A program made the position numbers and the translations under genes. Below are positions 32,273-50,947 of a stretch of DNA of 64,000 nt, piece by piece; position 1 is the stretch's first letter; each line of letters opens with the position of its first letter. The stretch covers positions 2,790,001-2,854,000 of the forward strand of contig NZ_CP016543.2 of NCBI RefSeq assembly GCF_001687665.2. The letters run 5' to 3'. Below the pieces are notes generated by a model that was given only the letters and a program-made list of their open reading frames with translations, did no database searches and was not told the origin of the DNA. The DNA is from Planococcus donghaensis. GTDB taxonomy: Bacteria; Bacillota; Bacilli; Bacillales_A; Planococcaceae.

Positions 32273-33082
32273 TCATTTTAAAAAACTGGGCAATTCACTA
32301 GCTTTCATCGGAAACTCCGCTTGTCTTTTATCAACAAATGACTGAATACCTTCAGTAGCATCTGCATTTTGTCCAGCCCAATGGAGAAATTTAGATTCCA
32401 CTAGATGCGACGCTAATGGATGGTCTTGCCCCATCATCTTCCAAAGTAATTGGCGTGTGAAACTATTTGAAGTTGCGGCAGTGTTCTCTACAATGTCCTG
32501 AGCAATTTCATAGGCTTTTGCAAGTGGATCTTCCGATTCGTATTGCATCAATCCTGCTTCTACAGCTTCAGTAGTTGGTATGTAGCGGCCAGTCAATGTC
32601 CAGTCAAGGGCTTTACCGATCCCTACAATTTTCGGCAAAAACCACCCCGATGCAGCTTCTGGTCCGATACCCCGTCGACCAAACACAAAACCGATTTTTG
32701 TATCTTTTTTAACAATCCGAATATCCATCGGCAATGTCATTGTCATGCCGATCCCAACAGCCGGTCCGTTAATCGCTGCAATGATTGGCTTATTGACTTC
32801 ATATACTTGAAGACTGACTTGACCACCAAGGTCTCGGTAGTCTTCTGAAGATTGCTCTGATAAAAAAGTAGAACCTCCTTCAGACAAGTCCATTCCAGCG
32901 CAAAAAGCTCGTCCACTTCCGGTTACGATAATAACACGCACGTCATCATCTTCATTGACGTTTTTATAAAAGTGCAAAAGCTCTTCGCTCATTTTTTCCG
33001 TATAGGCGTTCATATGATCTGGACGATTTAACGTCAAAGTCATAACCCCATCTTGAAGTTCTGTTTTAATCGTTTCGTACAA
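32273..33082 (-). CDS. Enoyl-CoA hydratase/isomerase family protein
   Basis: 269 residues from a TTG at 33082, supported by AGGAAGGAG upstream and the family N-terminus LYETIKTELQDGVMTLTLNRPDHMNAY. Crotonase fold with the CoA/oxyanion segments VTGSGRAFCAGMDLSEGG and KPIIAAINGPAVGIGMTMTLPMDIRIV, and RRGIGPEAASGWFLPKIVG, where a Glu in the EAAS position is one of the usual acid/base residues. It overlaps the preceding flavoprotein gene by 17 bases. Last gene of the cluster. Substrate unknown; second paralog at 41749. Confidence 0.88.
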   Translation of the reverse strand: MYETIKTELQDGVMTLTLNRPDHMNAYTEKMSEELLHFYKNVNEDDDVRVIIVTGSGRAFCAGMDLSEGGSTFLSEQSSEDYRDLGGQVSLQVYEVNKPIIAAINGPAVGIGMTMTLPMDIRIVKKDTKIGFVFGRRGIGPEAASGWFLPKIVGIGKALDWTLTGRYIPTTEAVEAGLMQYESEDPLAKAYEIAQDIVENTAATSNSFTRQLLWKMMGQDHPLASHLVESKFLHWAGQNADATEGIQSFVDKRQAEFPMKASELPSFLK

Positions 33083-33974
33083 GCATAGCCACTCCTTCCT
33101 CATATTCAGCTAGCAGTTGGTCGACTATTTCTTTCGTATTCTGCCGTTTTGTAATAGTTGTCACACCTTGACCTGCCGACCAAATGTCTCGCCAAGCTTT
33201 TGCATTAACCAAATGAGACAAATCAACTTCTTCTTTCGGTTTTAACGTTTTCGGATCGATCCCTTGTTTCACTAAACTTGGGATTAATATATTTGCCGGT
33301 ACTCCACTAAATGAATTGGTATAAAGAATGTCTTCAACTGAAGAATCGATGACCATTTGTTTGTATTCTTCGGGTGTATTACTTTCTTCCGCCGCTAAAA
33401 AACGTGTGCCCATATAGGCATAATCTGCTCCCATTAACTTAGCTGCAGCAACGTCTGCTCCAGTTGACAATGACCCGGCTAAAATAATGGTACCACTGTA
33501 AAACTCTTTAACTGCTGCGATGAAAGCAAATGGGTTAATCGTACCTCCGTGGCCACCTGCTCCAGAACAAACAAGAATTAGTCCATCTACTCCTGCGGAT
33601 GCTGCTTTTTTTGCATGCTTTACATTAGCCACATCCGAATAAACTAATCCTCCATAAGCATGAACAACTTCAATCATATCTTCTGGGGAACCAAGTGACG
33701 TAATAACAATTGGCGGCTCATATTGACGGATCAATTCAAAATCCTCTTCATAGCGCTTATTCGAACCGCGGTGAGAAATAAAGTTTACTGCCCAAGGCTT
33801 TTCGCCAAGCGCTTTTTTTATGTCTTTTAACCAAGAAGCGCAAGTTTCTACCGGCCGAGCATTAAGTAGAGGAAAGCTTCCAATAACACCTGCATTTGAT
33901 GCTTCGACCACCATGTTAGGAGTTGATACTAAAAACATTGGTGCCACAATAACCGGTAGCTTAAGCACTTTCAA
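33066..33974 (-). CDS. Nitronate monooxygenase/2-nitropropane dioxygenase family flavoprotein
   Basis: 302 residues, an FMN-binding TIM barrel. Family segments: LPVIVAPMFLVSTPNMVVEASNAGVIGSF at the start, DGLILVCSGAGGHGGTINPFAFIAAVKEF (phosphate/flavin-binding and the SGAGGHGG motif), YAYMGTRFLAAEES. Members in fatty-acid clusters may act on nitro- or alpha,beta-unsaturated compounds, or resemble FabK-type enoyl reductases; the exact reaction is open. Its end overlaps the enoyl-CoA hydratase start and its start overlaps the thiolase end by 14 bases. Confidence 0.85.
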   Translation of the reverse strand: MKVLKLPVIVAPMFLVSTPNMVVEASNAGVIGSFPLLNARPVETCASWLKDIKKALGEKPWAVNFISHRGSNKRYEEDFELIRQYEPPIVITSLGSPEDMIEVVHAYGGLVYSDVANVKHAKKAASAGVDGLILVCSGAGGHGGTINPFAFIAAVKEFYSGTIILAGSLSTGADVAAAKLMGADYAYMGTRFLAAEESNTPEEYKQMVIDSSVEDILYTNSFSGVPANILIPSLVKQGIDPKTLKPKEEVDLSHLVNAKAWRDIWSAGQGVTTITKRQNTKEIVDQLLAEYEEGVAMLVRND

Positions 33975-49374: not shown

Positions 49375-50947
49375 TTGTTTTTCCTCCAATGTTTTTCAGT
49401 GTATTTTTTAAAATTTTACCGGATGCATTTCTTGGTAAGCTATCGATTAACTCAAACTCTTCAGGTATTTTAAATTTTGCAAGCGACTTTTTACAATGCT
49501 CTTTTAGAGCGGTAAAATCGCGTCCATCCAATTTTGGACCCACTACAAACGCTTTTATTTTTTCTCCAAAAATCGGATCTGGTTCACCAATTACTGCAGC
49601 TTCTACTACATCAGGATGTGCCTTTAATACATCTTCTACCTCAATCGAGAAAATTTTTTCTCCAGCGCGATTGATCATATCTTTCTTACGGTCTCGTATA
49701 TAGATAAATCCATCCTCATCCTTTATACCAAGATCACCTGAATGCCAGTACCCTTCTGTAAAATTAGAATGATTGGCTACCGGATTTTCCCAATACTCTT
49801 TGACAATCATTGGTCCTTTAATATAAAGCTCCCCAGCTTCCCCAGCTTGGCATTCCTTTCCTTCTGCGTTAACAATTTTAATTTCGCCTACTTTAACAGG
49901 GAGCCCTACTGAAGTTACTTTGGAATCAGGATATGCTACCGGCATTAACGTGGCAGGAGAACTTGTTTCTGTTGCGCCATAAGCATTATGCAATTGAGCA
50001 TTTGGAAATGCTTTTTTTAGCATCGTAAAAGTTTGCTGATAAATAGGTGAACCACCAAAAGCCACTTTTTTCACAAAGTCAAACGAGTGCTTCTGAAATT
50101 CTTCACTGGTAGACATCATGATAAAAATGGTTGGTACATTAAACAGGAAATTAATCTTGTTGTCGATTATGCGTTTGATATATTCTTCATTCTGATAGCG
50201 CCGCATGCTATAGGCAGTTCCGCCAACATAAAACATATGTAATAATTGTCCGATTAGCCCTGTAACATGGAACATCGGTACCGCAATAAGGGTATTAAAT
50301 GTATCGTTTGTTTCAAACCCCAGTTTAAAATTCATTAAACTATGAATAACATTGATATGGCTCAACACTGCGCCCTTAGGTTGTCCCGTTGTACCAGAAG
50401 TGTAAATGATGAAAAGATTATCTTCTTCGTTGACTGTGATTTGCTCATAATGACTTTCCTTATTCAGGAGCTCTTCGTATGTATTTTCACCACCAATAAT
50501 AAGAATATTTTCGTGCGCAACTCCTGAAACACCTTCGCTAGCTTTTTTCACTTTACCTTCAAATTCTTGCTCGCTGATAATAATACTTGGTTTGGAATTT
50601 CCAATAATATATTGAAGTTCCTCCACAGCTAATTTGACGTTAATGGGAACCATGACCGCACCGATTTTTGCACATGCTATAACTAGTAAAGGAAATTCAC
50701 AACTATTGCCAACTACGGCCGCTACACGATCCCCTTTTTTAATTCCTCGCATTTGAAGGTTAGCAGCAATAATCGTGGCTAACTCTTCTAGTTGCCGATA
50801 ACTCAAAGATTCTTCTTCCGTCACAACTGCCAGTTTTTCCCTATAGATTTTACAGCTTTCACTGACTGTATCTCCTATAGTTTGTGGACGTTCTTTAAAA
50901 ACCTTGACTCCTTGGCGACCAAACAAACTTATTTCTTGAATTTCCAT
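49367..50947 (-). CDS. AMP-forming acyl-CoA ligase (ANL family, long-chain-type)
   Basis: 526 residues from the ATG at 50947 with GAGGAGGCGTTTT upstream; an ATG five codons earlier overlaps that site. ANL motifs: IIYTSGTTGQPKGAVLSH, AYGATETSSPATLMP, WHSGDLGIKDEDGFIYIRDRKKDMINRAGEKIFSIEVED, and the catalytic Lys in RNASGKILKNTLK. It activates the imported acid to its CoA thioester. First gene of the minus-strand run; the gap upstream (50948-51100) is AT-rich and must hold the promoter, but I see no convincing -35/-10 pair. Confidence 0.9.
   Translation of the reverse strand: MEIQEISLFGRQGVKVFKERPQTIGDTVSESCKIYREKLAVVTEEESLSYRQLEELATIIAANLQMRGIKKGDRVAAVVGNSCEFPLLVIACAKIGAVMVPINVKLAVEELQYIIGNSKPSIIISEQEFEGKVKKASEGVSGVAHENILIIGGENTYEELLNKESHYEQITVNEEDNLFIIYTSGTTGQPKGAVLSHINVIHSLMNFKLGFETNDTFNTLIAVPMFHVTGLIGQLLHMFYVGGTAYSMRRYQNEEYIKRIIDNKINFLFNVPTIFIMMSTSEEFQKHSFDFVKKVAFGGSPIYQQTFTMLKKAFPNAQLHNAYGATETSSPATLMPVAYPDSKVTSVGLPVKVGEIKIVNAEGKECQAGEAGELYIKGPMIVKEYWENPVANHSNFTEGYWHSGDLGIKDEDGFIYIRDRKKDMINRAGEKIFSIEVEDVLKAHPDVVEAAVIGEPDPIFGEKIKAFVVGPKLDGRDFTALKEHCKKSLAKFKIPEEFELIDSLPRNASGKILKNTLKNIGGKTNA

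What the first reader, a model, noticed from the sequence alone, without database searches (positions are those of the whole stretch)
32273..50947. Eighteen-kilobase acyl-CoA catabolic run with two uptake systems and unknown substrate
Seventeen genes on one strand, closely spaced or overlapping, ending in one strong terminator at 32202-32246. They encode two ligases, ACAD, two crotonases, HBD, thiolase, SDR, a MaoC heterodimer, an MDR reductase, an NMO-like flavoprotein, an APH kinase, a ComB-type phosphatase, TetR, a TRAP transporter and an AtoE permease. The set exceeds a fatty-acid beta-oxidation operon and lacks etfAB and fadR-type partners. The mix suggests degradation of a specific branched, cyclic, hydroxy or keto acid. 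I do not know a described pathway with this exact content.
Basis: partly seen in the sequence, partly recalled or inferred. Interest (0 to 1): 0.75.

Follow-up and report, generated by a model that had tools for sequence, protein, structure and literature searches.

The report
Kinase-primed hydroxy-acid degradation operon in Planococcus
A Planococcus bacterium carries a 19-gene run that probably takes up organic acids with a hydroxyl or keto group on carbon four, tags the hydroxyl with phosphate and burns the acid, using the same odd enzyme pair as animal ACAD11, plus an unexpected and probably mislabelled phosphatase partner.

Summary
The substrate class need not stay unknown. The ACAD is not an ordinary dehydrogenase: its best solved relative is ACAD11 (501 bits against 145 for SCAD) and all five active-site residues checked are present, four of them typical of ACAD10/11. 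The APH protein is the matching 4-hydroxyacyl-CoA kinase type. In ACAD10/11 and the Pseudomonas lva operon this pair phosphorylates the 4-hydroxyl and eliminates the phosphate without ETF, which explains the missing etfAB. So this is most likely a modular Bacillales version of 4-hydroxy (or 4-oxo) acid catabolism. The new part is the 'ComB phosphatase'. Of 118 ComB-family proteins examined, 66 fall in two lineages: 58 are kinase-linked, 5 lie by such an ACAD, 3 by neither; of the 52 others, none. The linked lineages keep the invariant core but have lost residues typical of the others, and databases call them 2-phosphosulfolactate phosphatase, probably wrongly. Some plasmid loci of other phyla place an unrelated histidine-phosphatase-fold protein there. 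Exact substrate and ComB activity remain unproven.

The parts
49367..50962 (-). acyl-CoA ligase 1 (LIG1); likely start 50947
   Evidence: NCBIfam acyl-CoA ligase models, the 25 shown all below cut-offs; start and SD
48148..49389 (-). ACAD11/LvaC-type acyl-CoA dehydrogenase, predicted 4-phosphoacyl-CoA phosphate-eliminating enzyme; R260 R265 H268 R271 D387
   Evidence: PDB: ACAD11 8v3u/8v3v/2wbi 496-502 bits, 4hr3 444 bits, then SCAD 145 bits; residues mapped
47152..48135 (-). MDR NAD(P)H:quinone/enoyl reductase-like, PIG3 family
   Evidence: TIGR02824 279 bits, cut-off 297; PDB 4eye
45974..47101 (-). TRAP transporter substrate-binding protein DctP
   Evidence: NF037995 over cut-off
44571..45899 (-). 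TRAP large permease DctM
   Evidence: TIGR00786 250 bits, below its cut-off of 268
43999..44547 (-). TRAP small permease DctQ (by size and position; no NCBIfam hit)
   Evidence: conserved place between DctM and TetR
43391..43975 (-). TetR regulator, FadR-like
   Evidence: NF053878 76 bits, below cut-off 200; TetR_C_24
43368..43389 (-). inverted repeat AAGCGAAA/TTTCGCTT between tetR and comB: possible operator or attenuator
42548..43351 (-). ComB-family (PF04029) phosphatase of a kinase-linked lineage
41749..42534 (-). enoyl-CoA hydratase 1 (ECH1)
   Evidence: models shown are below cut-offs
40883..41731 (-). 3-hydroxyacyl-CoA dehydrogenase (HBD)
   Evidence: NF004474 405.6 bits, cut-off 408; Pfam
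39820..40941 (-). APH-fold kinase, predicted 4-hydroxyacyl-CoA kinase (LvaA / ACAD11 N-domain type); real start probably nearer 40866-40890
   Evidence: PF01636; PDB 9o56 358 bits, ACAD11 kinase domain 162-165 bits; D237, N242, R194 match D220, N225, R176
39348..39794 (-). MaoC-type hydratase N-domain subunit (FAS1_DH)
   Evidence: PF13452
38983..39351 (-). MaoC-type hydratase C-domain subunit
   Evidence: PF01575
38160..38933 (-). SDR, candidate 4-oxoacyl-CoA reductase (LvaD-like role) or 3-hydroxyacyl-CoA dehydrogenase; variable module
   Evidence: PF13561; passes only the generic NF005559 among models shown; nearest PDB 4g81/4ibo; with ligase, AtoE, APH and ACAD in L046, L050, L087
36607..38130 (-). 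acyl-CoA ligase 2 (LIG2); variable module
35203..36594 (-). AtoE-type short-chain fatty acid permease; variable module
   Evidence: PF02667 444 bits
33961..35142 (-). thiolase, nearest to BktB
   Evidence: NF006552 521 bits, cut-off 565; TIGR01930 over cut-off
33066..33974 (-). NMO/FabK-like FMN oxidoreductase, role unknown
   Evidence: PF03060; PDB FabK 5gvj
32273..33103 (-). crotonase 2 (ECH2)
   Evidence: NF006109 over cut-off
51105..51134 (-). hairpin and T-run that ends yebC
51039..51072 (-). conserved promoter region TTGACTTGTAATTCAA ... TATACT
50971..50986 (-). palindrome ATGTAAGGGTTTTCAT, resembles a CcpA cre box (cre consensus recalled) with one centre mismatch
32210..32246 (-). terminator of the run

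Best explanation
A modular operon for catabolism of short 4-hydroxy acids, and with its variable SDR-LIG2-AtoE module probably 4-oxo acids such as levulinate. Proposed path: uptake by the TRAP system and AtoE (inferred from families); CoA activation by LIG1 or LIG2 (inferred); where needed, reduction of 4-oxo to 4-hydroxyacyl-CoA by the SDR (inferred, weak); phosphorylation of the 4-OH by the APH kinase (strongly inferred); redox-neutral phosphate elimination by the ACAD11-type ACAD to 2-enoyl-CoA (strongly inferred from homology and residues); hydration by ECH1 or MaoNC, oxidation by HBD or SDR, thiolysis by the BktB-like thiolase. ComB is proposed to be a dedicated partner of the kinase that dephosphorylates stalled 4-phosphohydroxyacyl-CoA or the free 4-phosphohydroxy acid (inferred, about 50%). 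TetR and a cre-like box would give induction by an acyl-CoA and carbon repression (inferred).
For: ACAD: ACAD11 leads SCAD by 356 bits; R260, R265, H268, R271, D387 match ACAD11 R626, R631, H634, R637, D753 (roles from PMC12440821 passages, where R631 is common to all ACADs). Of 8 other ACAD places in the genome, 7 were aligned and none has the set; the eighth had no locus. Kinase; D237, N242, R194. The pair travels together: 61 of 100 ACAD-like rows from the loci carry the five residues, the window's own included, and 35 of 79 APH loci hold an ACAD of 550 bits or more. Minimal ACAD-APH-MaoN-MaoC-THL-NMO-ECH2 in L263-L265. Ligase-SDR-AtoE-APH-ACAD five-gene clusters in L046, L050, L087 and L052. 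Propionyl-CoA outlet: methylmalonyl-CoA mutase family, three matches. ComB.
Against: No biochemistry. The ligase models shown are below curated cut-offs and the SDR passes only a generic one. R86 of ACAD11 did not map to an arginine. The ACAD persists in the yebC slot of genomes with only a distant kinase (43-47%) elsewhere (G002, G017, G028, G030, G032, G034; also G016 on a short contig); for G002, G030 and G034 the ACAD match carries one stop codon (not examined). 46 of 79 APH loci show no ComB, so ComB is not essential. No MmgE/PrpD in the genome, so odd-chain substrates depend on the mutase route. MDR, NMO and two ligases are not explained.
Confidence: 0.78

Rival explanations
1. A levulinate operon in the strict sense: the physiological substrate is levulinate or 4-hydroxyvalerate, giving acetyl-CoA and propionyl-CoA.
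For: Ligase, SDR, kinase and ACAD match the lva functions; short-chain permease AtoE; BktB-like thiolase; methylmalonyl-CoA mutases present; compact clusters in L046, L050, L087.
Against: The SDR-LIG2-AtoE module is absent in the nearest relatives, which keep the rest (L009/L248, L249); orthology to LvaD/LvaE untested; no methylcitrate dehydratase.
Confidence: 0.35
2. The ComB-family protein is a true 2-phosphosulfolactate phosphatase and the neighbourhood is accidental.
For: Same fold and invariant core; database name.
Against: 63 of 66 proteins of its two lineages are linked to the kinase or an ACAD of 240 bits or more, 0 of 52 of the rest are; Arg at 49 in 0 of 82 linked against 43 of 52, at 91 in 2 of 82 against 49 of 52, Asn at 102 in 0 of 82 against 52 of 52.
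Confidence: 0.07
3. ComB and the other phosphatase-fold partners do not hydrolyse phosphate but bind and restrain the kinase, as proposed for the HAD domain of ACAD10.
For: ACAD10 HAD reported as allosteric, with one Asp of the DxD motif missing (PMC11342911 section 12); His_Phos_1 partners read TSGG at the distal His motif in 7 of 7.
Against: ComB lineages keep D46, E90, N143, E174, D175, D196.
Confidence: 0.25
4. Several transcripts with unrelated roles, assembled by chance.
For: Modules vary between strains; inverted repeat after tetR.
Against: 19 genes on one strand, gaps at most 74 nt, no convincing internal terminator, shared acyl-CoA theme, conserved order in relatives.
Confidence: 0.08

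Closest known systems
lva operon (levulinate catabolism, Pseudomonas putida; Rand 2017, seen only through citing papers)
   Same: LvaA-type kinase and LvaC-type ACAD, plus ligase and SDR
   Different: TetR regulator; TRAP and AtoE transport; no gene identified as LvaB; ComB, MaoNC, HBD, thiolase, MDR and NMO included
ACAD10/ACAD11 of mammals
   Same: Kinase and phosphate-eliminating ACAD with the same active-site residues
   Different: Separate genes; no HAD domain; a ComB-family protein instead
lva cluster of Pseudomonas citronellolis LA18T (PMC6692424, passages)
   Same: A phosphatase-family gene beside the LvaA homologue
   Different: Histidine phosphatase there, ComB fold here
ComB, 2-phosphosulfolactate phosphatase
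   Same: Fold and invariant core
   Different: Separate lineages, other context, two typical arginines and Asn102 lost

Membership tests
lva / ACAD10-11 4-hydroxyacyl-CoA pathway | APH-fold 4-hydroxyacyl-CoA kinase | tested here: met
   By homology and D237, N242, R194 only; activity not tested; R86 did not map
lva / ACAD10-11 4-hydroxyacyl-CoA pathway | ACAD with catalytic Asp and phosphate-binding R/H/R | tested here: met
   R260, H268, R271, D387, and R265
lva / ACAD10-11 4-hydroxyacyl-CoA pathway | Growth on, or turnover of, a 4-hydroxy or 4-oxo acid | not testable with these tools
   Needs culture or enzymes
lva operon proper | LvaD-type reductase and LvaE-type ligase | tested here: inconclusive
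   SDR and two ligases present, orthology not shown
lva operon proper | LvaB, a 12-kDa kinase partner | tested here: inconclusive
   No unassigned same-strand ORF of 90 aa or more inside the run; shorter ORFs not examined; no LvaB sequence at hand
lva operon proper | LvaR-type regulator | tested here: not met
   The only regulator recognised in the run is TetR
ACAD10/ACAD11 | Kinase and ACAD in one chain | tested here: not met
   Separate genes with eight genes between them
ComB 2-phosphosulfolactate phosphatase | PF04029 fold and invariant core | tested here: met
ComB 2-phosphosulfolactate phosphatase | Grouping with, and residues of, ComB proteins outside kinase loci (R49, R91, N102) | tested here: not met
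   L, K and P in the window protein; separate lineage. That the other lineage holds the true enzyme is assumed
ComB 2-phosphosulfolactate phosphatase | Hydrolysis of 2-phosphosulfolactate | not testable with these tools
   Needs enzyme
classical fatty-acid beta-oxidation operon | Oxidising, ETF-linked ACAD with catalytic Glu | tested here: not met
   Asp at 387; ACAD11 group; no etf in the run

The most novel reading that the evidence does not exclude
The 4-hydroxyacyl-CoA kinase often works with a phosphatase-fold companion that limits its phosphorylated product, and evolution has recruited unrelated folds for it: ComB in Bacillota and Rubrobacter, a histidine-phosphatase fold lacking its distal catalytic His in Deinococcus, Streptomyces and Proteobacteria, and the HAD domain of ACAD10. 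The ComB lineages are then a misannotated enzyme family with a new substrate, 4-phosphohydroxyacyl-CoA or the free 4-phospho acid.
Probability: 0.4. Interest if true: 0.78.

Novelty: new variant of a known kind. Interest (0 to 1): 0.6.

Why it matters
It places a bacterial version of the recently solved ACAD10/11 pathway in a Gram-positive operon with transport and regulation, turning 'unknown substrate' into a short list to test. It also shows that two lineages of '2-phosphosulfolactate phosphatase' are tied to 4-hydroxyacyl-CoA kinases, so many database names are probably wrong, and it makes testable why phosphatase folds keep appearing beside this kinase, a question the ACAD10 authors met in the HAD domain.
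Full report
The run. All genes of the finding are present, on the minus strand, from 50962 (start codon with a good ribosome site at 50947) to 32273. There are 19 coding genes. Over curated NCBIfam cut-offs are DctP, ECH2, a general acyltransferase model for the thiolase and a generic SDR model; the other models shown are below theirs, so families give no fine substrate names. Gaps are at most 74 nt; the stem at 32246-32210 is by far the strongest terminator-like site of the scan. 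yebC upstream ends in its own hairpin. In the upstream region, aligned for the window and eight Planococcus regions that hold LIG1, TTGTAA and TATACT are kept in 9 of 9; the palindrome ATGTAAGGGYTTWCAT is exact in 6 of 9 and has one or two mismatches in three (L254, L260, L262). It occurs once in the window with up to one mismatch, 0.05 expected.

Host. The genome is a Planococcus: nearest locus P. halocryophilus L009, 18 matched proteins at 84-100% identity, 12 of them 96-98%. G000 has 3.32 Mb in 2 contigs.

The key enzymes. The ACAD matches ACAD11 at 496-502 bits and 4hr3 (a 'putative acyl-CoA dehydrogenase' in the listing) at 444; the first conventional ACAD scores 145. Mapping residues from the printed alignment, with the chain numbered one below the paper, gives R260, R265, H268, R271 and D387 for R626, R631, H634, R637 and D753. 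Of 100 ACAD-like rows from the loci then held, 61 carry all five, one being the window's own gene; the seven other own-genome ACADs aligned do not. PMC12440821 (passages) ascribes phosphate binding to R626, H634 and R637 and catalysis to D753, and calls R631 common to the family. The APH protein matches 9o56 and then the ACAD11 kinase domain; D237, N242 and R194 correspond to D220, N225 and R176; R86 did not map. PMC11342911 (passages; sections 12 and 13) reports that the ACAD10/11 reaction needs no added electron acceptor and that bacterial orthologues replace the mammalian domains. Thus the absence of etfAB is expected.

Synteny. Of 79 loci found by the kinase, 15 are Planococcus or Planomicrobium; 11 of these keep LIG1 to MaoC in the window's order, three (L016, L018, L020) have only a small set and one (L032) differs; Psychrobacillus (L019), Alkalibacillus (L027) and Chryseomicrobium (L044) keep a TRAP-bearing version. 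A close ACAD (over 770 bits) is in 25 of 35 same-genus relatives. I fetched 20 of those 25 regions, chosen by that ACAD; one is only 3.3 kb. In the other 19 the ACAD lies in the slot after yebC, in eight of them behind LIG1. Three (L263-L265) hold the small set ACAD-APH-MaoN-MaoC-THL-NMO-ECH2. Eight (L248-L251, L254, L260-L262) hold LIG1 and the MDR-TRAP-TetR-ComB-ECH1-HBD block; five of the eight also hold SDR and AtoE, two of them with LIG2; L248, L249 and L251 lack that block. Eight regions show the ACAD without a kinase (L252, L253, L255-L259, L267; L253 is the short one): seven of these genomes have one kinase of 43-47% identity elsewhere, and that of L267 (59%) lies about 21 kb away. In Halobacillus and Thalassobacillus a compact ligase-SDR-AtoE-kinase-ACAD cluster occurs (L046, L050, L087; L052). 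A Sulfitobacter plasmid carries SDR-ACAD-ligase-kinase-TRAP (L241).

ComB. Forward: 33 of 79 kinase loci hold 34 ComB genes, each on the strand of the nearest kinase; 16 of 34 overlap it or lie within 60 nt, upstream in some genera and downstream in others. Reverse: PF04029 in 60 genomes (28 with a match) and the window ComB in 299 genomes of the class (117 with a match). I examined context for the higher-scoring part; listed places left out all scored under 59 bits, and unlisted ones were not seen. Of 118 distinct proteins from these two searches with context, the window's own included, 48 fall in lineage 1 (45 kinase-linked, 3 with ACAD only), 18 in lineage 2 (13, 2, and 3 with neither) and 52 in the rest (0 and 0). 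'Kinase-linked' means an APH of 80 bits or more on the same strand within 5 kb; 'ACAD' means 240 bits or more in the stretch, its residues not checked for these loci. Four Planococcus proteins on 3.7-kb loci (L107, L112, L113, L115) were counted as kinase-linked because of their neighbours; longer stretches confirm three (L261, L249, L260), L113 was not extended. Many Planococcus copies are near-duplicates, so 118 is not a number of independent events. In the tree of all 134 proteins (forward ones included) the label 'none' needs 4 changes against 42.6 in shuffles; lineages 1 and 2 have SH-aLRT 97 and 100; long branches are flagged. In the genus there are 17 ComB genes in 15 of 35 relatives: 14 seen with a kinase in the fetched stretch or in the forward locus of the same contig, G019 by neighbours only, and 2 (G006, G029) beside a 66-67% ACAD and ligases with no kinase in 16 kb. 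In the protein database 36 of 116 ComB relatives share their longest contig's length with one of the 120 kinases listed of 2151. Every name that a source gives to those ComB relatives is 2-phosphosulfolactate phosphatase. D46, G89, E90, T121, G123, T124, N143, G166, E174, D175 and D196 are kept at 92% or more in each group. Arg49 is in 43 of 52 of the rest and 0 of 82 linked; Arg91 in 49 of 52 and 2 of 82; Asn102 in 52 of 52 and 0 of 82. The model (pLDDT 92.5) is a ComB fold.

Other phyla. Of 18 plasmid regions read, 16 hold a kinase; 7 of these 16 have a histidine-phosphatase gene beside it or one gene away (Deinococcus three times, Pseudoalteromonas, Ideonella, Streptomyces, a Rhodobacteraceae), 9 do not, and none has ComB. 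I chose the regions from the listed hits, so 7 of 16 is not a frequency. Three of the seven were run against Pfam and are His_Phos_1. In all 7 the motif near the distal catalytic histidine reads TSGG; for one of them, L236, two printed alignments to solved members put His opposite that Ser, one of them a sub-threshold segment. PMC6692424 (passages) had noted such a gene beside lvaA in P. citronellolis. The idea that phosphatase folds repeatedly join this kinase is my inference.

Function. I commit to 4-hydroxy (or 4-oxo) acid catabolism by phosphorylation and elimination, and to ComB as a kinase partner that clears or limits the phosphorylated product. Chain length is open: AtoE, TRAP and a BktB-like thiolase point to short acids; methylmalonyl-CoA mutases allow propionyl-CoA use although MmgE/PrpD is absent. 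Roles of MDR and NMO are unknown.

Novelty. The pathway is known; its Bacillales form and the ComB pairing were not found in print in my searches, which cover open-access papers only and of which I saw mostly listings.

Noticed in passing
L248-L267 (Planococcus, yebC to persulfide dioxygenase slot): In 19 of 19 long regions chosen for the ACAD it sits in the slot after yebC, while other catabolic modules, even the local kinase, come and go between strains.
   Followed up: partly
L234:11265-11978, L235:4652-5356, L236:4029-4733, L237:4055-4747, L239:4156-4815, L245:4070-4729, L247:5052-5750: Histidine-phosphatase-fold proteins next to the kinase read TSGG where the distal catalytic His is expected, like a pseudo-phosphatase.
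   Followed up: partly
L235:1556-2127: A HicAB toxin-antitoxin pair is annotated between the ACAD and SDR genes of the Deinococcus cluster.
   Followed up: no
window 50971-50986: Palindrome ATGTAAGGGYTTWCAT upstream of the operon, exact in 6 of 9 Planococcus sequences and near in three; cre-like but with GG instead of CG in the centre.
   Followed up: partly
window 52002-53108: Bacterial nitric oxide synthase oxygenase-like ORF upstream of yebC (recognised by eye, not by a search).
   Followed up: no
G000:C1:982475-983476 (L268): A second kinase of the same type (46% identity) elsewhere in the genome, without other operon relatives nearby.
   Followed up: partly
L241: Sulfitobacter plasmid with SDR-ACAD-ligase-kinase-TRAP, an alphaproteobacterial counterpart of the operon.
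   Followed up: no
G002, G021, G030, G034: The close ACAD match is reported with one in-frame stop in these four genomes; whether it is a truncated gene or the natural end was not looked at.
   Followed up: no
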